From a virus: a stretch of 22,616 nt of DNA. Of this stretch, positions 4,778-22,616 are shown piece by piece; position 1 is the first letter of the stretch, and each line of letters starts with the position of its first letter. Location: the IMG/VR virus record IMGVR_UViG_3300035180_001221, positions 1 to 22,616 of that record; one strand, written 5' to 3'. The position numbers and the translations under genes are program-made. Below the pieces are notes generated by a model. That model was not told the origin of the DNA, ran no database searches, and worked only from the letters and a program-made list of their open reading frames with translations.

Positions 4778-5539
4778 ATGGTTTTGACAGCAGGTATTTT
4801 AACACTTTTAAGCGTTGGTTCTAACACAACTCAGCTTATTACTACTCCAGCAAGTGGAGGAACTGGCCCATACACTCAACAATGGTATAGATCTACAACA
4901 ACAGGTTTTACACCTGGAAGCGGTAATATACTCGCCGGACAAACAGATTTAACATTAAATGATTCTGTTCTTATTCCAAACACAACTTATTATTACAAAG
5001 TAGTTTTTACAGATGTAGGAGCATCAAGCGCAACAATCACGTCAGCACAATTAACAGTTACAACTATTCCATCTACAGTAAATATTAACCAATTTGCAAT
5101 GTCTCCATTTTTAGGAATGACAGATCTAAGAGTAGGAAATACAAATGTAACAGCTGCACAAATTGATGTTACACAAAGTGGACCTTTATTTAGCGGAAAT
5201 GCTGTTAAAATTGTAAATGGTCCTAATGGAATTCCAACAGTAATTGGTGCAGCGGCCGCAACAGATAACATTTGGGGATTTATTGTTTATGATATTAAAT
5301 CTCAAAATTATCCGATTGGCGCACGTTGTGAAATTGCCCAAGCTGGTACATGCATGTTCTTATACGCAACTACTGCAATAACACGCGGACAAAAAGTAGT
5401 ACTAGATTTAACAAGTCCTGCTTCTGTTCAAGCAGCAACAGGATCGAATACTATTGTAGGTTATGCATTTGATCAGTCTCCAGGGTATGGATCACTTATC
5501 AGAGTTATAATAAGTTCACCAAGCTTTTTAACTAATTAA
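4778..5539 (+). CDS. Capsid decoration protein with N-terminal Ig/FN3-like domain
   Basis: A 253-residue protein with a strong AAAAGGAG site before its ATG. It lies immediately upstream of the major capsid gene, the usual place for a head decoration or cement protein. Residues about 100-250 resemble compact beta-rich decoration proteins: AAATDNIWGFIVYDIKS, then PIGARCEIAQAG, ITRGQKVVLD and IVGYAFDQ. Residues 1-96 look like an extra Ig/FN3-like beta-sandwich (PASGGTGPYTQQWYRS ... PNTTYYYKVVFTD ... QLTVTT), ending in a Thr/Pro linker. Such domains on capsids are known in other phages and are thought to give weak adhesion to surfaces or mucus. The decoration role is inferred from position and fold pattern. 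Confidence 0.72.
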   Translation: MVLTAGILTLLSVGSNTTQLITTPASGGTGPYTQQWYRSTTTGFTPGSGNILAGQTDLTLNDSVLIPNTTYYYKVVFTDVGASSATITSAQLTVTTIPSTVNINQFAMSPFLGMTDLRVGNTNVTAAQIDVTQSGPLFSGNAVKIVNGPNGIPTVIGAAAATDNIWGFIVYDIKSQNYPIGARCEIAQAGTCMFLYATTAITRGQKVVLDLTSPASVQAATGSNTIVGYAFDQSPGYGSLIRVIISSPSFLTN

Positions 5540-7648: not shown

Positions 7649-8061
7649 GTTCGTCAATTGGTTGGATTAATAATGCTTGTAATGTGCCGCTAAATGCTAA
7701 TAGCGGAACAGTCCCCGACGCAAGCACAGCGCTTGATGACTGGTATCAACCTATGACTTTTGGATTAATTACAAAAACTGTTTCAGACTTTCAGGTGATT
7801 GAAACTATTGTTAACATTAAATTTTTAGGTGTGTGGCAACCTCTTTCTGGAAGACAATTAGTCATGAAACCAGAAGGTCAAAGAGCTTGGTCTTGGTGGA
7901 AATTATTTTCACAAAGGCAATTAAATTTAAAAATAGATGATGTTATTATTTACTTAACAAAACAATATCGAGTTATGGCAAATAAAGATTTTACCCTTGA
8001 GCAATACCAAGAATATGATCTTGTAGAAGACTATTTAAATTCAGGACCACCAACACCATGA
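7645..8061 (+). CDS. Head closure (stopper)-like protein
   Basis: A 138-residue protein with ATGA coupling to the gene before and the gene after. The pattern QPLSGRQLVMKPEGQRAW, IDDVIIYLTKQYRVMANKDF and YQEYDLVEDYLNS recurs in short proteins at this position in related myophages. The C-terminal small beta barrel (DDVIIY...YRVM) is like that in head-closure stoppers, which keep packaged DNA inside before the tail docks. The assignment rests on order (after the adaptor and gp10-like genes, before the terminator-like gene) and on fold pattern; it could alternatively be another collar component. Confidence 0.6.
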   Translation: MSSSIGWINNACNVPLNANSGTVPDASTALDDWYQPMTFGLITKTVSDFQVIETIVNIKFLGVWQPLSGRQLVMKPEGQRAWSWWKLFSQRQLNLKIDDVIIYLTKQYRVMANKDFTLEQYQEYDLVEDYLNSGPPTP

Positions 8062-8801
8062 CATTAACATTGGTATCAAATGTTTCAGCAATAGGTCCCG
8101 GATTAACAACGTATTTTCTTGCGTCTGGAGGAACTGCGCCATACATTTATTCCGTACTTCCTATGGGAGCGGGAGGATCAATAAATGCTTCTACGGGACA
8201 ATATTTTTCTCCTATTAATGTTCCTTCTTCTGTTAATAATGCTTACGATACTATTCAAGTCATAGATGCAACAAGTACTCTTTTAACTTTGAAAATACTT
8301 GTAGGAACCGCTCTTACATTATTTTGCGATATTTTACAAAATCAATTAGGTCTTGCTAATGATCATATTTACGTTTGGAATCAAAAATTAATGGAGCCTA
8401 CAGATTATAATCTTTATATTGCAGTAAGTGTTTTTAATTCAAAGCCTTTCGGCAATACAAATTATTTTAATGGTGCGACACAACAATCTATTCAATCAAT
8501 AAACATGCTAGATACATTACAAATAGATGCCATAAGCCGTGGCCCTTCTGCGCGTGATAATAGAGCAAATATTTTAATGGCGTTGAATAGCAATTACTCA
8601 GAACAACAACAAGAATGTAATAGTTTTAAAATTGGGACTTTGCCAGCAAATTCAAGTTTTATAAATTTATCCCACACAGATGGAGCAGCAATTCCCTACC
8701 GTTTTCAAATACAAGTTAATATGCAGTATTTTGTTCAATTAATTCAATCTGTAAATTATTATGATACATTTAATCAATCGACTGTACTGGTTAACCCATA
8801 G
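8058..8801 (+). CDS. Tail terminator-like neck protein with N-terminal BIG/Ig-like domain
   Basis: A 247-residue protein. Residues about 88-247 form the core: DILQNQLGLANDHIYVWNQ, AVSVFNSKPFG, SRGPSARDNRANILMALNS, SEQQQECNSFKIGTLP and AIPYRFQIQVNMQY. I recall these motifs from neck or terminator-like proteins that precede DUF3383 sheaths. Residues 1-82 are an extra beta-sandwich: ASGGTAPYIYSVLPMGAGGS, INASTGQYFSP, then DTIQVIDATS and a final Val/Leu strand. The same module type is found at the C-terminus of the gpJ-like protein (17841-18098). The gene starts within the previous stop and ends 11 bases before the sheath. The role as terminator is inferred from position. Confidence 0.65.
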   Translation: MTLTLVSNVSAIGPGLTTYFLASGGTAPYIYSVLPMGAGGSINASTGQYFSPINVPSSVNNAYDTIQVIDATSTLLTLKILVGTALTLFCDILQNQLGLANDHIYVWNQKLMEPTDYNLYIAVSVFNSKPFGNTNYFNGATQQSIQSINMLDTLQIDAISRGPSARDNRANILMALNSNYSEQQQECNSFKIGTLPANSSFINLSHTDGAAIPYRFQIQVNMQYFVQLIQSVNYYDTFNQSTVLVNP

Positions 8802-8812
8802 GAGTTATAAAT

Positions 8813-10558
8813 ATGACGTCTCTATCAATAGACAATGTAGTTAATGTTTCAGTTGCATCCTCAAATATTGGGGTAAATGCATACAACACAAGCAATTTAG
8901 CAATCATAACAGGTGAAGCAGTTACACAAGCTGTGCAAAACATTACATTTTCAGGTGTAGCGGCAAGTGGCGCATTTGTGTTGCAATTTGGATTATTGAC
9001 AACAGCATCAATTGCATGGAATGCAACTATTTCAACTATACAAAGCGATATTAATGCTTTATCTGGATTAGAAAGCGTTGTTGTAAGTGGTTCAATTGCT
9101 AGTAAAAATTTGACTTTAACTCAACCAGGAAATTTAGGAAAAATTCCATTAGCCATTGTACCAACAAATACTCTTGCTACCTCTGGATCTGTAGCGATTA
9201 CAGTAACTCCTATTAATACTTCAATTGGATGGAGTGGCCAAGCGTTAGGTTATGCTATTTATAATTCACCAACCCAAGTAGGGTTAGATTTCGGAACTTC
9301 GTCTAGAACATTTCAAATGGCTAATGATATATTTGGACAACAGCCAAATATTTTGGCAGGTAGCGGGCAATTAATTGCTATACTTAGTAATGTATCGCAA
9401 CAGACATTAACTCTTTCAGGTATTCCCGCAAGTGGAGCTTTTGAACTAGAATACAATGGAAATACAACTACAAGTCTTTCCTACAACTCAACAGTATCTC
9501 AAATACAAGCAGCGCTTCAATTATTACCAGGACTTGCCGGTGTTCAAGTTATTGGTGGTTTGCCAGGAGAATTATTAACAATAATATTTAATGGGGTATA
9601 TGGAATAGCATTACCTATTACAGTACCAACAAATACTTTAGCAACGTCCGCTCCCGCTGCAATTACGATAACAGTGGCAAGTTTGGTAGTTGGAGAATCA
9701 TACGGAGAAGTTATTAGCCGTACTCAAGGGGTAGTACAATATTTTGGCGTTATGCCAACAGAAACTTTAGCAGTAATAGGGCAAACAGATATGCTTGCCG
9801 CAGCTTCAATTATTTTACCATTAAACTTAATTGGCTTCTTTGTATCATATGATAGTGCTGATTTGCTTCCTGGCGGAATGATTTCTTTGTTAACAACGGG
9901 TTCTTTTCATAATACACGAGGACTTTACTATGGTGATTCATCATTGGTTGGAATTAACGCGGTATTATACATGGCAGCCTACGCCGGTCTTGCTTTATCT
10001 GTAAATTTTAACGGCAGTAATACAACTACTACTATGCACTTAAAAACACTTTTAGGAATTGAACCAGATCCTACAATGACTCAAACTATTCTTAATTTAG
10101 CTAAAATAGCGGGTGCTGATTGTTATGTTTCAATTCAAGGAGATCCTTGCGTATTTATCTCTGGTGCAAATAAATTTTTTGACCAAGTTTATAACCAAGA
10201 ATGGTTTGTTGGGTCATTAAAAGTTGCAGCCTTTAATTATCTTGCTCAAAGTGCAACAAAAGTTCCGCAAACTGAACAAGGTATGGATGGATTAAAAGGG
10301 TCTCAAAGGATTGTTTGTGACCAAGCAGTTACAAATCAATACGCAGCTCCAGGAACATGGACAAGTTCAACTACATTTGGAAATCAAACTTTATTTTATC
10401 AAAATATTTCCCAATTTGGATACTATATTTATTCTCAACCAATTTCACAACAACAGGCAACTGCGCGCGCGGGACGTATAGCGCCTTTAATTCAAATTGC
10501 ATTGAAAGAAGCCGGTGCTATACAAAGTGCAAATATCATTGTTTATATTAATAATTAA
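8813..10558 (+). CDS. Tail sheath protein (DUF3383-type) with two inserted beta modules
   Basis: A 581-residue contractile sheath protein with a GGAG site. Core sheath segments are visible: VNVSVASSNIGVNAYNTSN at the N-terminus, QVGLDFGTSSRTFQMANDIF (about 155-174), GMISLLTTGSFHNTRGLYYG, LVGINAVLYMAAYAGLAL, and a C-terminal IAPLIQIALKEAGAIQSANI. The core is interrupted by two ~90-residue modules related to each other, at residues about 41-135 and 196-281 (VQNITFSGVAASGAFVLQFG and QQTLTLSGIPASGAFELEYN). Removing both leaves a protein of ordinary sheath length. The modules would project from the outside of the tail. The sheath surrounds the tube and contracts on infection. Confidence 0.93.
   Translation: MTSLSIDNVVNVSVASSNIGVNAYNTSNLAIITGEAVTQAVQNITFSGVAASGAFVLQFGLLTTASIAWNATISTIQSDINALSGLESVVVSGSIASKNLTLTQPGNLGKIPLAIVPTNTLATSGSVAITVTPINTSIGWSGQALGYAIYNSPTQVGLDFGTSSRTFQMANDIFGQQPNILAGSGQLIAILSNVSQQTLTLSGIPASGAFELEYNGNTTTSLSYNSTVSQIQAALQLLPGLAGVQVIGGLPGELLTIIFNGVYGIALPITVPTNTLATSAPAAITITVASLVVGESYGEVISRTQGVVQYFGVMPTETLAVIGQTDMLAAASIILPLNLIGFFVSYDSADLLPGGMISLLTTGSFHNTRGLYYGDSSLVGINAVLYMAAYAGLALSVNFNGSNTTTTMHLKTLLGIEPDPTMTQTILNLAKIAGADCYVSIQGDPCVFISGANKFFDQVYNQEWFVGSLKVAAFNYLAQSATKVPQTEQGMDGLKGSQRIVCDQAVTNQYAAPGTWTSSTTFGNQTLFYQNISQFGYYIYSQPISQQQATARAGRIAPLIQIALKEAGAIQSANIIVYINN
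8933..9217 (+). repeat. Inserted beta module, copy A (sheath residues ~41-135)
   Basis: The first of four copies of one protein module in this window. Pattern: SG-x-A/P-x-SG-A/T-F-x-L-x-[FY], an aromatic or Ile strand with N-x-T/D/S, an I-Q-x-x-[LI] helix, a V-x-G strand, and closing beta strands. The closing part NTLATSGSVAITVT is shared with copy B (NTLATSAPAAITIT). Both copies contain the 15 bases GTACCAACAAATACT at 9168 and 9623. Confidence 0.8.
9398..9655 (+). repeat. Inserted beta module, copy B (sheath residues ~196-281)
   Basis: Second copy inside the sheath gene: LSGIPASGAFELEYNG, SLSYNSTVSQIQAALQLLPG, VQVIGG, LLTIIFNG and a closing TNTLATSAPAAITITV. It is separated from copy A by about 60 residues of genuine sheath sequence, so the two were inserted at different loops or moved together with the intervening core. 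Confidence 0.8.
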
Positions 10559-16250: not shown

Positions 16251-18101
16251 ATGCCAAATAGTTTAACAGCAACAGGAATAACCACATCAAGTCAAGCAGA
16301 ACTTCTTGCAAATCAAACTGCAAATTTGCAAGCAATTTATGGTACAGATATTGATTTAAGTTCTAATACTCCAGACGGCCAAGCTGTTAATATAAATATT
16401 CAAGCCCAAATTGATGTCCAAGAATTAGCTGTACAAATATATACTTCATTTGATCCGGATCAAGCAGTAGGCACACAATTAGATCAAAGATGCGCAATAA
16501 ATGGAGTGAAAAGACAAGCAGGGACATATTCTACAACGTCAATAAATCTTGTACTTACTCAATCTGTAAATTTATATGGTTTGGATCAAAATATTCAACC
16601 TGTTTACACTGTATCTGATAATATTGGTAATCTATGGAATTTACAACAAACTCAATTAGGTGTAGGACCTGGAACAGTTATTTATTCATTTCAAGCCGCA
16701 ACTCCTGGCGCAAATATTACCATACCAAATACAATTAATGTTCCTGTAACTATTGTTTTAGGTGTTCAATCAATAAATAATCCAACATCCCAAAGTATAG
16801 TTGGAATTAACGAAGAAACAGACCCTTCGCTAAGAATTAGAAGGCAATCATCTGTATCAATTTCATCTCAAGGATATCTTCAAGGTTTACTTGGAGCTTT
16901 AGAAAACATCAACGGCGTAGCATCTGCTTTAGTTTATGAAAATAATGGCGGAACAATAGATGCAAATGGTGTACCTGGGCATTCAATATGGGTGATCATA
17001 GATGGGACTCCTACAATATCACCAGTAACTGCATGGTCATCTATTACTATTTATTCATACGGACAAATAGTTACATATGCAGGAATAAATTATATATCTT
17101 GGAAAAATAACAATTTAAATAATGCAGTCACTAATACATTTTATTGGGGTGTATATAATCCAATAGCGCAAAATATATATGCAAAAAGAAATGCAGGATG
17201 TGGCATGTATGGCCAAACTAGTTATACGATAACTCAAATTGATAATAATCAATTTGTTGTTTTATGGGATTTTGTAGCAGAGCAAAATCTTTATATATCT
17301 TTTACAGCTACTTCAATTAATTCATTGAACCAGCCAAATATTAGAGGAATTATATCATCTCTCGTTGCTAATTATAAATTTAGTGTAGCTGAAGAAATTA
17401 ATATAAATCAAATGGCCACTATTGTACAACAAGCAGATCCTAATTGTTTAGTGACAAATGCTGGTTTAAGTTTATCTCTTACTCAAATAGCTAATCTTTC
17501 AGGTGTGGCAGCAAGTGGAACATTTCAATTTTCATATAACGGGAATAATTCATCTGCAATAAATTGGAATGACGCAGTAGGAACTATCCAAACAAAATTG
17601 CAAGCAATAACTGGATTATCAAATGCTACAGTATCAGGTTCAATTGCAAGTCAAATTTTAACAATTACATTAAATGTATTATCTTCTGCTAGTTTGATAA
17701 CAGTTATAAATAACTCTATTATTACAAGTGGTTCTGTTCCTGTCTCATTTTCATTTAATGAAGGTTATTCAAGTATTTTATCACCAACTTTAAAAAAAGA
17801 TAAATTTATATTAAGTGCTGAAAATATTATAATATTGCCTATGATATTATCTCCAACTATATCAACTTTATCTTCTCTTGCTACTCTGCAATTAACTGGT
17901 TTAGGTGGATATGGTAATCAATATCCTTCAGTCCCTGTTACTAATAATTTAATTTATTCTATGCAATCTAATCCAAGTGGTGGAACAATAAATAGCCAAA
18001 CAGGATTATATACCGCAGGTGCAGGAATTGGTACTGATATAGCTAAAGTTAAAGATGCTTTTGGAAACACTGCAACAGCAACAATATTGGTGACTGTATG
18101 A
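16251..18101 (+). CDS. Baseplate wedge J-like protein with three accessory domains
   Basis: A 616-residue gpJ/gp6-like protein. The core includes GTDIDLSSNTPDGQAVNINI (31-50), AVGTQLDQRCAINGVKRQAG (72-91), the EETDPSLRIRRQSSVSISS segment (188-206) and LENINGVASALVYEN (217-231). Three additions are seen: a CBM5/12-like module at about 258-303 (AWSSITIYSYGQIVTYAGIN), module copy C at about 411-505, and a BIG-like domain at about 531-616. The core resumes between the last two with LSPTLKKDKFILSAENIIIL. The core builds the baseplate inner ring that triggers contraction. The extra modules would be surface exposed. Its stop overlaps the next start (ATGA). Confidence 0.92.
   Translation: MPNSLTATGITTSSQAELLANQTANLQAIYGTDIDLSSNTPDGQAVNINIQAQIDVQELAVQIYTSFDPDQAVGTQLDQRCAINGVKRQAGTYSTTSINLVLTQSVNLYGLDQNIQPVYTVSDNIGNLWNLQQTQLGVGPGTVIYSFQAATPGANITIPNTINVPVTIVLGVQSINNPTSQSIVGINEETDPSLRIRRQSSVSISSQGYLQGLLGALENINGVASALVYENNGGTIDANGVPGHSIWVIIDGTPTISPVTAWSSITIYSYGQIVTYAGINYISWKNNNLNNAVTNTFYWGVYNPIAQNIYAKRNAGCGMYGQTSYTITQIDNNQFVVLWDFVAEQNLYISFTATSINSLNQPNIRGIISSLVANYKFSVAEEININQMATIVQQADPNCLVTNAGLSLSLTQIANLSGVAASGTFQFSYNGNNSSAINWNDAVGTIQTKLQAITGLSNATVSGSIASQILTITLNVLSSASLITVINNSIITSGSVPVSFSFNEGYSSILSPTLKKDKFILSAENIIILPMILSPTISTLSSLATLQLTGLGGYGNQYPSVPVTNNLIYSMQSNPSGGTINSQTGLYTAGAGIGTDIAKVKDAFGNTATATILVTV
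17022..17159 (+). other. CBM5/12-like module inserted in the gpJ-like protein
   Basis: Residues about 258-303 show the aromatic pattern of chitin-binding type modules: W-x(6)-Y-x(2)-GQIVTYAGINYISW, then NNNLNNAVTNTFYW. The same NLN-x-x-VT-[ND]-T-x-[YW]-W ending is found in the first fibre gene. It sits within the baseplate core between a beta region and the YAKRN segment. Binding activity is inference. Confidence 0.65.
17481..17765 (+). repeat. Inserted beta module, copy C (gpJ residues ~411-505)
   Basis: NLSGVAASGTFQFSYNGNNS, then SAINWNDAVGTIQTKLQAIT and VSGSIASQILTITL match the sheath copies (SGVAASGAF and SGSIASKNLTLT in copy A) and copy D. The 16 bases CAATAAATTGGAATGA at 17557-17572 recur exactly in copy D at 18297-18312. 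Confidence 0.8.
17841..18098 (+). other. C-terminal BIG/Ig-like domain of the gpJ-like protein
   Basis: Residues about 531-616: TLQLTGLGGYGNQYPSVPVT, SGGTINSQTGLYTAG and KVKDAFGNTATATILVTV. It matches the N-terminal module of the terminator-like protein (GGSINASTGQYFSP, TIQVIDA), suggesting a shared origin. Confidence 0.65.
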
Positions 18102-19018
18102 GTACTCTTGATCTTGTAAATTATTATAAAAATCTTCTTATAAAACAATATTCTGGTTTACCTAACGCAAGTGGAACTGTTGAAACAACAATAACACCAT
18201 TATTAATTCCTCAACAATCTGTACAAACTATTAAATTTAATCCAATTCCTACTTCTGGTACATTTGTCTTGTCCTATAATGGAGTTAATAGTTCTACAAT
18301 AAATTGGAATGATTCATATTCTACAATACAAACTAGTTTACGGACCATTCCGGCTTTAAGCCAAGTAATTGTTACAGGCTCAATCTCTTCGGGTTTAACA
18401 ATAAATTTTGTAGGGTTAACATTAGTTGCTCAATTATTAGTCATATTTTCAAGTAATTTATTATCCACAGGAAATCCTGTAACAATAACAATTAAAGAAA
18501 CAGACTTGACTTTACCTCTTGCTATTCAAGATGCCTTTAATTTAGATACTGCAATTGGAGTTCAGTTAGATATATTGGGAAAATATACAGGTGTTAAAAG
18601 AACAATAAGTACACCTACACAAACAATAACATTAAATGATTCAGATTTTAGAATTTTAATTAAATTCTCTATTGTACAAAATAATTCAGGTAGTTCATTA
18701 GAAACAATTGAACAAAATTTAAATATATTTTTTCCTGGAAATTTTCTTATAACAGACTATAAAAATATGTATATGAGTTATATATTTTCACAATCTATAG
18801 GTAGTCCTGATTTATTTAAAGCAATTATTCAAGAAAAATTAATACCAAAACCAATGGGTGTTGGATTTTCTGTTTTAGTTCCTCCTATTGTAAATGATTT
18901 TTTTGGATATAGTACATATGAACAGGGTGGAATAAATCCAGTAGTTAAACCATATAATACATACGAAAATTTTGATACAAATTGGTTATATTTAGACTAC
19001 AATAATTTTATTTATTAG
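18098..19018 (+). CDS. DUF2612-type baseplate protein with inserted beta module
   Basis: A 306-residue protein following gpJ with ATGA overlap. The core matches the DUF2612 pattern: VNYYKNLLIKQYSGLPNASG at the N-terminus, then AIQDAFNLDTAIGVQLDILG, KYTGVKRTI, LNDSDFRILIKFSIVQNN and IPKPMGVGFSVL. The first two core pieces are separated by module copy D at about residues 41-135 (TIKFNPIPTSGTFVLSYNG). The core takes the place of tail protein I in P2/Mu-like baseplates and links the wedge to the fibres. The C-terminus is Tyr/Asn-rich (YGYSTYEQ-like, ending YLDYNNFIY) and may contact the fibre. Next gene follows after 8 bases. Confidence 0.88.
   Translation: MSTLDLVNYYKNLLIKQYSGLPNASGTVETTITPLLIPQQSVQTIKFNPIPTSGTFVLSYNGVNSSTINWNDSYSTIQTSLRTIPALSQVIVTGSISSGLTINFVGLTLVAQLLVIFSSNLLSTGNPVTITIKETDLTLPLAIQDAFNLDTAIGVQLDILGKYTGVKRTISTPTQTITLNDSDFRILIKFSIVQNNSGSSLETIEQNLNIFFPGNFLITDYKNMYMSYIFSQSIGSPDLFKAIIQEKLIPKPMGVGFSVLVPPIVNDFFGYSTYEQGGINPVVKPYNTYENFDTNWLYLDYNNFIY
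18218..18502 (+). repeat. Inserted beta module, copy D (DUF2612 protein residues ~41-135)
   Basis: IPTSGTFVLSYNGVNSSTIN, WNDSYSTIQTSLRTIPAL and VTGSISSGLTINFVG align with copies A-C. It is closest to copy C, with which it shares SYNG, INWND and an exact 16-base stretch. It splits the DUF2612 core between its N-terminal helix and the AFNLDTAIG block. Confidence 0.8.
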
Positions 19019-19026
19019 GAATAAAA

Positions 19027-20193
19027 ATGTCAAATTTATTAAGATATACACAACAAATATTTGCATCATTAGCAGGAAATAATCAATTATCTGAGTATGG
19101 TTCTTTCATAGCATCTCCACCAGGAAATTTGTATAATGGATCAACAATAACTCCAGCAATTGTACAACAATTATCTAACTATTTAGAGGGTTTATACGCA
19201 GCAACTGGTGGAGCATATAGTCCTACAATTCAAGATCATAACTCTCTTTTTTATCTTTTATCATATCAAATCGCTTATTTATTACAAAAAGGAATACCTG
19301 AATGGGATGCAGGAACGACATATTTTATAAATGATTTTGTAAAAGTTGGAGAAAAAATATACATATCATTGCAAAATACAAATTTAAATCATTTAGTAAC
19401 AGATACGGCATGGTGGAGATATCCTGATGTTTATGCAAATAGTGTAACATCCAATACAAATATAAGTGCAGGAACAACAATCACGGCAGGAACAGGAATA
19501 ACAGCTACAACCGGAAATATTATAGCATCAGCCGGGGAAATATCATCAATGGGTGATATAACATCAGATAATGGTGATTTAAATGCTCCATCCGGTAATG
19601 TTAATGCTAATTTAGTTATTGCCTCAACAGGTTTAACTGTTAAAAATGGGAATAAATTATCATTATATAATGTAGCGGAAACTGCTTCTACTTCATTTAA
19701 ATCACATCCTACTGCGACACAACAAGATTATATTTTACCGCCTGCATTACCAACAACATCAGGACAATCATTAGTAAGTGATACAAGTGGGAATATGAGT
19801 TGGGGAAATATACAACCTTTAAATACAAGCTCAAGTTTAGTAACATTCCCTTTATCTACATGGTATTCTGTTGCTCCAGGATCGACATTACAAACTGGAA
19901 AATACTTAATCTGTGGACATGCGCAATTTAATATAACAACTAGTACCCCTTTTACTGCTACATTATATGTAGGAATAGAAGGAGGGGTAGGTGTTCCTTC
20001 TGATTTAGATGAGGGTATTAATGCTTTAACTCAATCATTTGGCGTATCAACAGGTGAGGCAATTATATCAATTTCATTAACTAATAGGTTCATAATTGTA
20101 AATTCACCTCGTGTTTTATACTTATACGCAAATGTAACTGCTTCATCATCTTGTACTGCGGGCGGTAATTTAATTGCAATCCCATGGCCTTAG
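19027..20193 (+). CDS. Tail fibre protein with CBM5/12-like module
   Basis: A 388-residue protein with an AGGAataa site. Residues 1-88 (QQIFASLAGNNQLSEYGSFI, YSPTIQDHNSLFYLLSYQIA) are a conserved N-terminal attachment domain I recall from myophage fibres with this baseplate type. Residues about 90-134 are a CBM5/12-like module (WDAGTTYFINDFVKVGEKIY, NLNHLVTDTAWW). Residues 140-200 are Gly/Thr/Ala/Ile repeats suited to a beta-helical shaft. The C-terminal ~125 residues look like a C1q-like beta sandwich (GKYLICGHAQFN, LYLYANVTASSS, IAIPWP). It probably binds a host surface receptor, possibly a polysaccharide. Confidence 0.76.
   Translation: MSNLLRYTQQIFASLAGNNQLSEYGSFIASPPGNLYNGSTITPAIVQQLSNYLEGLYAATGGAYSPTIQDHNSLFYLLSYQIAYLLQKGIPEWDAGTTYFINDFVKVGEKIYISLQNTNLNHLVTDTAWWRYPDVYANSVTSNTNISAGTTITAGTGITATTGNIIASAGEISSMGDITSDNGDLNAPSGNVNANLVIASTGLTVKNGNKLSLYNVAETASTSFKSHPTATQQDYILPPALPTTSGQSLVSDTSGNMSWGNIQPLNTSSSLVTFPLSTWYSVAPGSTLQTGKYLICGHAQFNITTSTPFTATLYVGIEGGVGVPSDLDEGINALTQSFGVSTGEAIISISLTNRFIIVNSPRVLYLYANVTASSSCTAGGNLIAIPWP
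19294..19428 (+). other. CBM5/12-like module in the first tail fibre
   Basis: Residues about 90-134: PEWDAGTTYFINDFVKVGEK followed by IYISLQNTNLNHLVTDTAWW. Spaced Trp and Tyr residues and a G-x-x-Y core fit carbohydrate-binding modules of the chitinase type. The ending matches the gpJ module (YIS, N-x-NLN-x-x-VT-x-T). Confidence 0.65.
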
Positions 20194-20606: not shown

Positions 20607-22616
20607 ATGAGCGGAACAGATTATCCAGATTGGCGAGTTGGAGGAGGAGGAAATGCTACTATTAACTCCGTTGTATTACCTCTTGTTATAAATAGTGGAG
20701 TATTGAGTGTTAATAATTCTACTACCACGACTTCCGGTGTAGTTATCATTAATGACCTTTATACAAGCATACCGTCGCACACTGACGCAACAACATCATT
20801 TTTTGTAACGCAAGCAATTGCAGCGGCAATTGTAAGCGGAAAATCATTTCGCGGCGGTTATGACGCGTCCAGCGGTGCTTATCCTTCAACGGGGGGGTCA
20901 TTACCGGGCGGCGAGATAGGTGCGGGCGACTATTGGGTTATTACAGTCGCCGGGACTGTCGGATCAATATTAGTTTTAGTGGGTGATACATTAACAGCGT
21001 TAATACAAGACCCGGGCCAAATTTCAACAAATTGGTTTATAAATGCGGCCGGAGTTTCCAGCGTATTCGGTAGATTTGGTAACATTGTTGCAGTATCTGG
21101 AGATTATAATATATCTCAAATAACGAATGGTTTGAGCAATGTACTGCCATCGGCAAATATTTTCGTAGGTAATGGTTCTGGAATTGCCACAGGCGTATCT
21201 TTATCGGGCGACATTGGCATAAGCAACACAGGCTTAACAACACTTGCAACTGTGAACGCGACCGTTGGATCTTTCGGGTCATCTACCTCAATTCCTTCAT
21301 TTACAGTGAACGGAAAAGGATTAATAACGGCAGCAAGTTCAAGCGTGGTCATTGCACCGGCTGGAACTCTCACAGGAACTACATTAGCATCTAATGTAGT
21401 TTCATCTTCATTGACTAGCGTTGGTACTTTAATAACTGGTATATGGAATGCAACAGCAATAGATCTAACTAATTATGCAAGTGGAGTTCTACAAGCGGCT
21501 CAATTTCCAGCGTTAACCGGAGATGTGACAAATACAGTAGGATCGTTAGTAACCGCTATTTCTAATACGACAGTCACAGGAAAATTATTGACTGGTTATG
21601 TAGCAGGAACAAACACACCTATCGTAGCCACAGATTCAATTTTAACAGCATTTCAAAATTTACAAGCTCAAGTCAGCGGAACATCAGGGGCAGCAATTAC
21701 TTCACTTACGGGTGACGCAACAGCAACCGGGCCAGGTGCAAGCGCATTAACTCTAGCAACAGTTAATAGCAATGTTGGTTCATTTGGTTCCTCAACATCT
21801 ATCCCGAGTTTCACAGTAAATGGAAAAGGTTTACTTACAGCAGCAGGAAGCAGCGTAGTAATTGCGCCATCTGGAACTCTCACAGGTACAACATTAGCGT
21901 CAAACGTTGTTAGTTCTTCTTTAACAAGTGTAGGCATATTGACTAGCGGTGATACAGGTGCAACTCAAGTCGTAGATCCGACAACGACTACAAGTGCAGC
22001 CTTAAATTTAGCATTAAGCAATATCCTAGCGGCATCAGGCGTCACTAGCGTAAGCGTAGTAAGTGCCAACGGATTAGCCGGAACTGTAGCGACAGCGTCA
22101 ACGACGCCAGCTATTACTTTATCAACGACAGTGACAGGACTAGTAAAAGGAGACGGAACCGCGCTAAGCGCGGCAGTCTCAGGCACGGACTACAGCGCAG
22201 GTACAAGCGCGTTGGGCACGGGTATTCTAAAGTCAACGACAGGAACCGGGGCACTAACGATAGCTGTTGCGGCAGATTTCCCAATTCTCAATCAATCAAC
22301 GACAGGAAATGCGACAACCGCAACGACTTCAACAAATCTCGCCGAAACCACGGTAAACAGTATCCCGTATCAGTCTGCGAGTGCGACGACAGGATATGTA
22401 GCACCAATAAATAATGCAGTTCTAGCAACCAATGGTAGTGGAGTACCTAGTCTAGTTACTACTTTACCAGCTATTAATGGTGGTTCATTAACTGGATTAA
22501 CTGGTACTCTTAATAGCTCAGTTAATAGTATGACTGTAGCTGTTAATGGCGGGACTGCATCAAGTCCAGTGAATATCATAAACAGTAATGCACTTGGACT
22601 AACAGGCGTGACTTTA
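20607..22616 (+). CDS. Large tail fibre protein (3' partial)
   Basis: The frame starting at ATG 20607 (GGGAG site) has no stop through the last base, so at least 670 residues are encoded and the gene continues outside. It is Thr/Ser/Ala/Gly/Val-rich. A conserved fibre domain occurs near residues 77-142 (SFRGGYDASSGAYPSTGG, IGAGDYWVITVAGT, DTLTALIQDPGQ), then SSVFGRFGNIVAVSGDYN. Residues about 212-275 and 382-445 are two copies of a 64-residue repeat (ATVNATVGSFGSSTSIPSFT). Later parts (AAVSGTDYSAGTSALGTGIL, LNQSTTGNATTATT) are common shaft sequences. It probably forms a trimeric fibre that binds the host. Base composition is mosaic. Confidence 0.86.
   Translation, partial: MSGTDYPDWRVGGGGNATINSVVLPLVINSGVLSVNNSTTTTSGVVIINDLYTSIPSHTDATTSFFVTQAIAAAIVSGKSFRGGYDASSGAYPSTGGSLPGGEIGAGDYWVITVAGTVGSILVLVGDTLTALIQDPGQISTNWFINAAGVSSVFGRFGNIVAVSGDYNISQITNGLSNVLPSANIFVGNGSGIATGVSLSGDIGISNTGLTTLATVNATVGSFGSSTSIPSFTVNGKGLITAASSSVVIAPAGTLTGTTLASNVVSSSLTSVGTLITGIWNATAIDLTNYASGVLQAAQFPALTGDVTNTVGSLVTAISNTTVTGKLLTGYVAGTNTPIVATDSILTAFQNLQAQVSGTSGAAITSLTGDATATGPGASALTLATVNSNVGSFGSSTSIPSFTVNGKGLLTAAGSSVVIAPSGTLTGTTLASNVVSSSLTSVGILTSGDTGATQVVDPTTTTSAALNLALSNILAASGVTSVSVVSANGLAGTVATASTTPAITLSTTVTGLVKGDGTALSAAVSGTDYSAGTSALGTGILKSTTGTGALTIAVAADFPILNQSTTGNATTATTSTNLAETTVNSIPYQSASATTGYVAPINNAVLATNGSGVPSLVTTLPAINGGSLTGLTGTLNSSVNSMTVAVNGGTASSPVNIINSNALGLTGVTL
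20761..20940 (+). other. GC-rich segment at the 5' part of the large fibre gene
   Basis: Bases 20821-20940 contain 69 G or C of 120 (57.5%, hand count), while 20221-20340 just upstream contain 38 of 120 (32%). A second rich block (22141-22260, also 69 of 120) lies later in the same gene, and 22441-22560 falls to 46 of 120. The segment encodes the conserved fibre domain and suggests an acquired cassette. Confidence 0.6.
21240..21431 (+). repeat. Fibre protein repeat, copy 1 (64 residues)
   Basis: Runs from TLATVNATVGSFGSSTSIPS to SNVVSSSLTSVGTL. It matches copy 2 at 58 of 64 residues, by hand alignment, but 40 of those 58 identical residues use different codons. Confidence 0.85.
21750..21941 (+). 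repeat. Fibre protein repeat, copy 2 (64 residues)
   Basis: Runs from TLATVNSNVGSFGSSTSIPS to SNVVSSSLTSVGIL. The longest shared DNA stretch with copy 1 is about 16 bases (CTGGAACTCTCACAGG). Confidence 0.85.

What the first reader, a model, noticed from the sequence alone, without database searches (positions are those of the whole stretch)
8933..9655. Tail sheath carries two inserted copies of a ~90-residue beta module
Residues 41-135 and 196-281 of the DUF3383-type sheath do not look like sheath sequence but resemble each other (SGVAASGAFVLQF / SGIPASGAFELEY; TNTLATSGSVAITVT / TNTLATSAPAAITIT). Core sheath motifs flank both. Sheath subunits surround the tail in many copies, so two extra domains per subunit would give a dense coat of appendages. 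Inserted domains in sheaths are known, but a duplicated module also found in other baseplate genes of the same phage is unusual. The pattern reminds me of tandem beta modules in large bacterial surface proteins, which I cannot verify here.
Basis: partly seen in the sequence, partly recalled or inferred. Interest (0 to 1): 0.75.

Follow-up and report, generated by a model that had tools for sequence, protein, structure and literature searches.

The report
Repeated surface module on phage tail
The sheath of this uncultured phage's contractile tail carries two copies of a small domain that the phage also carries in two baseplate proteins; the same domain is already known from mycobacteriophage particles and giant bacterial proteins, so this is a new arrangement of a known accessory module.

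Summary
Observation confirmed. The DUF3383-type sheath (8813-10558) holds two homologous ~97-residue modules, residues 41-137 and 196-292 (43-45% identical), and the same module sits in the baseplate wedge gene 16251-18101 and the DUF2612 gene 18098-19018. A profile finds exactly these four copies. By sequence and predicted fold it belongs to the family of the Bxb1 C-terminal-extension domains (capsid gp14, tail tube gp19, tail-tip gp23 x3; Z up to 12.9), which have no Pfam model. It occurs in 433 phage records and, up to 18 times, in large bacterial proteins.

The two sheath copies are not equivalent. Copy 2 fills the loop where canonical DUF3383 sheaths carry an ordinary insertion domain of similar fold. 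Copy 1 is a true extra insertion, cleanly absent from close relatives. Relatives form a nested series: no copies, sheath-2, +DUF2612, +wedge, +sheath-1.

A mycobacterial sheath of another family (Bixzunavirus) carries one copy in the same first loop, so sheath copies are not unique. Dense outward display is likely; a role in weak host-surface adhesion is inferred from a Douge precedent and untested. Verdict: new variant of a known kind.

The parts
8813..10558 (+). contractile tail sheath protein, 581 aa (DUF3383 / phrog_205)
   Evidence: Pfam PF11863 E=3.4e-27; phrog_205 tail sheath E=1.1e-49 over residues 1-580; AlphaFold model pLDDT 84, best PDB match XM1 sheath 7kh1 Z 37.7
8933..9223 (+). 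module copy S1, residues 41-137, inserted in loop 1 (between core strand 1 and the first core helix); absent from close relatives
   Evidence: profile E 8.9e-44; clean empty site in L012-L018, phi1422, XM1, SE4; one clade on the tree, support 100/99
9398..9688 (+). module copy S2, residues 196-292, in loop 2 (after core strand 2), the site of the ordinary DUF3383 insertion domain
   Evidence: profile E 1.4e-44; present in all close relatives and phi1422, replaced by another domain in XM1-type sheaths, empty in SE4/EKP1/KM; excised model pLDDT 93.7
16251..18101 (+). baseplate wedge protein (phrog_6), 616 aa, carrying one module
   Evidence: phrog_6 E=5.6e-29
17484..17762 (+). module copy J, residues 412-504 of the wedge protein
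   Evidence: profile E 1.1e-40; missing from the phi1422, L011, L018 and L044 orthologues
18098..19018 (+). DUF2612 baseplate-region protein (phrog_587), 306 aa, carrying one module
   Evidence: PF11041 E=6.4e-21; phrog_587 E=2.2e-27
18221..18499 (+). module copy G, residues 42-134 of the DUF2612 protein
   Evidence: profile E 1.5e-41; missing from phi1422 gp66 and the L018 orthologue

Best explanation
The module is a ~95-residue mixed strand-helix accessory domain of the family of the Bxb1 C-terminal-extension (CTE) domains, used as a display module on the outer face of virion proteins. In this phage lineage it has been added step by step to four sites in three tail genes: the sheath insertion-domain loop (S2), the DUF2612 protein (G), the baseplate wedge protein (J) and last a second sheath loop (S1). 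Strand 1 and strand 2 of the sheath's parallel alpha/beta N-terminal domain should end at the same edge, so S1 and S2 should stick out side by side on the outside of the sheath, away from the tube. Scaling from XM1 (18 rings; gene in the tape-measure position 479 aa against 432 aa here) gives about 16 rings, about 95 sheath subunits and so about 190 modules per tail. The most likely job is many-fold weak binding of surface sugars of the host or its surroundings, which holds the particle near the cell before the fibres engage, while the conserved core does contraction. SHOWN: four homologous copies, family membership, predicted fold, empty sites, nested distribution. INFERRED: outward position, copy number, stepwise gain direction, sugar binding. 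Subjective likelihoods: identity and family about 0.9; outward display about 0.85; adhesion as main function about 0.5.
For: Four copies by profile, z 17-22 against shuffles. Family: PDB profile search hits Bxb1 gp23 (1.2e-25, three stretches), gp14 capsid (6.7e-9), gp19 tail tube (1.1e-3); structure Z 12.9 / 10.7 / 10.5, rmsd 2.0-2.1 A over 83-95 residues, and Patience gp22 Z 9.6. Both sheath copies have the same order of strands and helix in the full model, offset by ~155 residues. Empty sites in relatives and a nested series of genomes. S2 is the most divergent part of the sheath in several relatives (49-54% against 70-77% for the C-terminal domain), as expected of an exposed accessory part. 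Precedent: Bxb1 capsid and tail-tube extensions can be deleted with phage viable, and the authors report preliminary evidence that the capsid one is external (PMC8704799); similar extensions are called a dominant surface feature in LeBron/Wildcat (PMC3029335); capsid and tail-tube accessory domains of phage Douge bind mycobacterial surface glycans (PMC13033339); extra sheath domains lie away from the tube contact (PMC9230969).
Against: No ligand or binding site was identified here. The Douge domains shown to bind glycans are called Ig-like and were not shown here to belong to this family. Deleting the Bxb1 extensions leaves the phage viable, so the benefit may be slight. No virion structure exists for this phage; outward position rests on homology and topology. 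The host is unknown.
Confidence: 0.6

Rival explanations
1. The modules are cement: S1 and S2 of neighbouring subunits pack against each other and stiffen the extended or contracted sheath, as proposed for extra domains of phage 812, and the baseplate copies dock onto them.
For: Extra domain of phage 812 touches the neighbouring subunit (cited in PMC9230969). Modules sit both in the sheath and in the adjoining baseplate proteins. S1 evolves about as slowly as the core in some relatives.
Against: Close relatives without S1 and sheaths with no insertion at all (SE4, EKP1, KM) keep the conserved core. The same module sits on Bxb1 capsid and tube ends, where it is dispensable. S2 diverges faster than the core.
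Confidence: 0.25
2. Copy 2 is just the ordinary DUF3383 insertion domain, diverged beyond sequence recognition, and copy 1 is a simple duplicate of it; the likeness to Bxb1 domains is a shared old fold.
For: Same loop as the XM1 insertion domain; the excised model aligns with the loop-2 domain of many sheaths (A-1(L) Z 7.2, PhiTE 7.2, Mu 6.3, Milano 6.1, E217 5.6, XM1 5.3, all at residues ~82-211). XM1 sheath matches DUF3383 over its full length. An S1+S2 grouping is not rejected (p-AU 0.32).
Against: Profile-profile comparison of the module with XM1-type insertion domains finds nothing (probability 0.5%), while Bxb1 domains match strongly by sequence and score Z 9.6-12.9 against 5-7. S1 is not nested within S2 on the tree.
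Confidence: 0.3
3. The module is a promiscuous, near-neutral passenger spread by recombination between similar coding stretches, kept because these loops tolerate insertions.
For: 433 phage records in varied virion proteins; bacterial tandem arrays as a possible source; dispensable in Bxb1.
Against: Each site's copy stays intact and in frame across divergent relatives and forms site-wise lineages (S1 and J each one clade). Non-phage sequences could not readily replace the Bxb1 extensions.
Confidence: 0.15

Closest known systems
Bxb1 C-terminal-extension domains (gp14 capsid, gp19 tail tube, gp23 tail tip x3; PDB 9d93, 9d9w, 9d9x)
   Same: Same sequence family and fold; one module repeated in several virion proteins of one phage
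   Different: Bxb1 is a siphophage (own knowledge); there the module is C-terminal on capsid and tube subunits and repeated in gp23, here it is inserted inside a contractile sheath, a wedge and a DUF2612 protein
Bixzunavirus tail sheath (Mycobacterium phage Tonenili gp140)
   Same: Same module (profile E 4e-15), also after core strand 1 (loop 1); relatives Phabba and Settecandela lack it
   Different: Another sheath family (Phage_sheath_1), a single copy, followed by a second unrelated domain
Bdellovibrio phage phi1422 sheath gp55
   Same: Nearest named relative (41.5% over 436 aa) with the same gene order; carries S2
   Different: No S1, and no module in its wedge and DUF2612 proteins
Vibrio phage XM1 sheath gp6 and its insertion domain
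   Same: DUF3383 sheath, Z 37.7; insertion domain in the loop of S2 with similar fold, noted as FliD-like
   Different: Insertion domain not recognisably related by sequence; no module in loop 1
Ig-like accessory domains of phages (Fraser et al. 2006; Douge capsid/tube domains)
   Same: Works like them: mobile accessory domains on virion surfaces
   Different: No Ig Pfam match; the predicted module contains a helix and matches Bxb1 domains best

Membership tests
DUF3383 contractile tail sheath | Match to PF11863 / sheath PHROG | tested here: met
   95.9 bits against cut-off 34.9, profile positions 291-491; phrog_205 1.1e-49
DUF3383 contractile tail sheath | Sheath core fold | tested here: met
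   Z 37.7, rmsd 2.5 A over 352 residues with XM1 sheath 7kh1
DUF3383 contractile tail sheath | Gene order of a myovirus tail operon (completion protein, sheath, small virion protein, tape measure, baseplate) | tested here: met
   same order in phi1422
Bxb1 CTE-type domain | Sequence profile match | tested here: met
   gp23 1.2e-25, gp14 6.7e-9, gp19 1.1e-3
Bxb1 CTE-type domain | Same fold over the whole domain | tested here: met
   Z 12.9, 2.1 A, 95 of 97 residues with 9d93_Ma
Bxb1 CTE-type domain | Exposed on the virion surface and dispensable | not testable with these tools
   Reported for Bxb1 (PMC8704799); here by inference only
XM1-type sheath insertion domain (for S2) | Located in loop 2 of the sheath N-terminal domain | tested here: met
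   alignment with XM1, 1.052.A, BgManors32
XM1-type sheath insertion domain (for S2) | Common fold | tested here: inconclusive
   Z 5.3, 3.0 A over 80 residues with XM1; 5-7 with other sheaths at the same loop
XM1-type sheath insertion domain (for S2) | Sequence homology | tested here: inconclusive
   hhalign probability 0.5%; the insertion-domain profile had only 5 rows
Ig-like domain | Match to an Ig-type Pfam model | tested here: not met
   no Ig family among hits for 32 module sequences
Ig-like domain | Ig beta-sandwich fold | tested here: inconclusive
   model has a helix at 33-41; TCR chains only at Z about 4

The most novel reading that the evidence does not exclude
A phage lineage in which one surface module has been copied within the genome, one site at a time, into four sites of three tail genes (S2, then G, then J, then S1), ending with two modules per sheath subunit: a natural series for measuring what each added copy does for adsorption. 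The nested distribution is shown; that the copies arose from each other inside the genome rather than by repeated import is not excluded and not shown.
Probability: 0.35. Interest if true: 0.55.

Novelty: new variant of a known kind. Interest (0 to 1): 0.42.

Why it matters
It ties together three things described apart: the C-terminal extensions of mycobacteriophage capsids and tails, the variable extra domains of contractile sheaths, and tandem modules of giant planctomycete-type proteins. All hold one domain family that has no Pfam model. The relatives form a series with none, one, two, three and four copies, which makes the old question of what accessory virion domains do testable by comparison. 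It also suggests that the XM1 insertion domain, called unique to that phage, has counterparts of similar fold at the same loop in many sheaths.

Tried and rejected
Pfam and NCBIfam searches of the modules: no family. The source of S1 (S2, J or G) could not be resolved: all groupings tested remain open (p-AU 0.15-0.37). hhalign of module against XM1-type insertion domain: no signal. The Bxb1 structure paper (PMC12124961) is not in the library, so details of Bxb1 rest on the PDB entries and on other papers. The idea that both sheath segments are foreign to DUF3383 architecture was rejected for copy 2.

Full report
WHAT THE WINDOW IS. The window is a 22,616-base uncultured virus record with a head-and-tail block of a contractile-tailed phage: terminase, portal, head morphogenesis, protease, major capsid protein, completion proteins, sheath, tape measure, hub, wedge proteins, fibres. 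The nearest named genome found is Bdellovibrio phage phi1422, with the same gene order. The host of this virus is not known.

THE OBSERVATION. The 581-aa product of 8813-10558 contains two segments that align at 43-45% identity over ~100 residues (BLASTP E about 1e-16; 21 s.d. above shuffles). A profile made from them and two further segments finds exactly four copies in the record: sheath 41-137 and 196-292, wedge protein 412-504, DUF2612 protein 42-134. Pairwise scores among all four lie 17-22 s.d. above shuffles.

TWO LOOPS, TWO HISTORIES. Sheath relatives from viral contigs and named phages were aligned. Loop 1 (after core strand 1): copy S1 is present in the window's clade and cleanly absent in L012-L016, L018, L026-L028, phi1422, XM1, 1.052.A, BgManors32, SE4, KM and EKP1. 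Loop 2 (after core strand 2): SE4, KM and EKP1 have nothing; XM1, 1.052.A, BgManors32 and L026 have an ordinary DUF3383 insertion domain; the window's clade and phi1422 have copy S2. The XM1 sheath matches DUF3383 over its whole length, so a domain in loop 2 is normal for this family. The finding's own refutation test is therefore half met: for copy 2, not for copy 1.

FOLD. The sheath model (pLDDT 84, 21 sequences) shows the same order of elements in both modules, shifted by ~155 residues. Its best PDB match is the XM1 sheath, Z 37.7. The excised module (pLDDT 93.7) matches Bxb1 gp23 (Z 12.9, 95 residues, 2.1 A), gp14 (10.7), gp19 (10.5) and Patience gp22 (9.6); then, at Z 5-7, the loop-2 domains of many sheaths (A-1(L), PhiTE, Mu, Milano, E217, XM1) and domains of flagellin and FliD. 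The XM1 authors noted a FliD likeness for their insertion domain and called it unique to XM1 (PMC10457771); the present rows suggest that similar domains stand at that loop in many sheaths. Z of 5-7 alone may be a common arrangement; the repeated coincidence of site makes it more than that, but candidates were preselected by Foldseek.

FAMILY. By sequence the module profile hits Bxb1 gp23 (three stretches, 1.2e-25), gp14 (6.7e-9) and gp19 (1.1e-3). A module consensus finds 433 phage records: Mycobacterium 371, Gordonia 31, Rhodococcus 19 and others, under names such as minor tail protein, major tail protein, major capsid protein and tail sheath protein. PHROG families of tail proteins also contain it. 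There is no Pfam model. In bacterial genomes a profile built from phage copies finds it 1-18 times per protein in large proteins of Planctomycetota, Verrucomicrobiota, Solirubrobacter and others, for example 15 regular copies at ~87-residue spacing in L061.

A SECOND SHEATH WITH THE MODULE. The Tonenili sheath (another Pfam family, Phage_sheath_1) has one copy at residues ~61-158, after core strand 1, by alignment the same topological loop as S1; its relatives Phabba and Settecandela lack it cleanly. Some 190 records carry full-length relatives of this sheath at 90% identity or more. A 2022 survey lists Bixzunavirus sheaths (581 aa) as three-domain and Phabba (482 aa) as two-domain; the passages read do not name the module (PMC9230969). 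Loop 1 has thus received this module at least twice.

NESTED SPREAD. Presence by genome: L023 and L027, no copy found; phi1422 and L018, S2 only; L011, S2 and G; L014, S2, G and J; window, L003, L006 and L010, S1, S2, G and J. L044 has G and a wedge gene without J, its sheath not being in view. In phi1422, L011 and L018 the wedge gene is whole and simply lacks the module, and so does the DUF2612 gene of phi1422 and L018. On the module tree S1 and J are each one clade (100/99 and 96/80), and G and S2 cluster by site. Read with the outer relatives as root this is stepwise gain, S2, G, J, S1; loss in the reverse order is less simple but not excluded. Which copy gave rise to which is unresolved.

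HOW IT MOST LIKELY WORKS. Core: the sheath core contracts as in XM1. Modules: in the parallel alpha/beta N-terminal domain the loops after strands 1 and 2 should lie at the same edge; loop 2 carries the insertion domain in XM1, and extra sheath domains lie away from the tube (PMC9230969). So S1 and S2 should sit side by side on the outside. XM1 has 18 rings of six (PMC10457771) and a 479-aa gene in the tape-measure position; with 432 aa here, about 16 rings, 95 subunits and 190 modules follow (inference). [quoted passage not shown] In Bxb1 the capsid and tube extensions can be removed, are strongly immunogenic and resist replacement by non-phage sequence (PMC8704799). Accessory domains on the capsid and tube of Douge bind mycobacterial surface glycans (PMC13033339), but those are described as Ig-like and membership of the present family was not tested. 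Many-fold weak adhesion is therefore the best guess at about one in two; cement and near-neutral passenger are the main rivals.

VERDICT. Real, correctly seen, and a new arrangement: two modules per sheath subunit plus two baseplate copies. The module, its spread over several virion genes of one phage, and its insertion in a sheath are each known or already in public annotated genomes. New variant of a known kind; moderate interest, mainly for the nested series and for linking families described apart.

Noticed in passing
L015:1860-3647 and L018:9647-11434: These relatives' sheaths have an N-terminal extension of ~100 residues resembling the N-terminal part of the window's capsid-decoration gene 4778-5539 (GGT.PY..QWYRS...LTLNDS...P.T.YYY), so another accessory domain appears fused to a sheath.
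   Followed up: partly
window 16251-18101 (residues ~261-288) and 19027-20193 (residues ~92-117): Short weak CBM_5/12-like stretches in the wedge protein and in a tail fibre protein; in the wedge protein it is an insertion present in L003, L006 and L010 and absent from L014, L040, L045 and phi1422.
   Followed up: partly
window 4778-5539: Capsid decoration gene: XM1 gp53-like C-terminal part (PF23982) with a weak Ig_7-like N-terminal part.
   Followed up: no
window 8058-8801 (N-terminus) and 16251-18101 (C-terminus): Both carry a similar Ig-like-looking stretch (GG...Y..Y.....GG.IN..TG.Y......D...V.D), a third kind of shared accessory segment.
   Followed up: no
window 20607-22616: Open-ended frame of at least 670 aa with a 186-base repeat (71% identical, 510 bases apart), looking like a repetitive tail fibre; cut by the end of the record.
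   Followed up: partly
L046:1377-3581 and L047:4890-6047: Two further viral proteins of unknown role (735 and 386 aa) carry one module each, L046 in a 153-kb contig.
   Followed up: no
PDB sheath chains 8kee, 9cba, 9ki1, 8foy, 8env, 7kh1: Loop-2 domains of many contractile sheaths share a FliD/flagellin-like arrangement with the module (Z 5-7); could be one old domain at a fixed site.
   Followed up: partly
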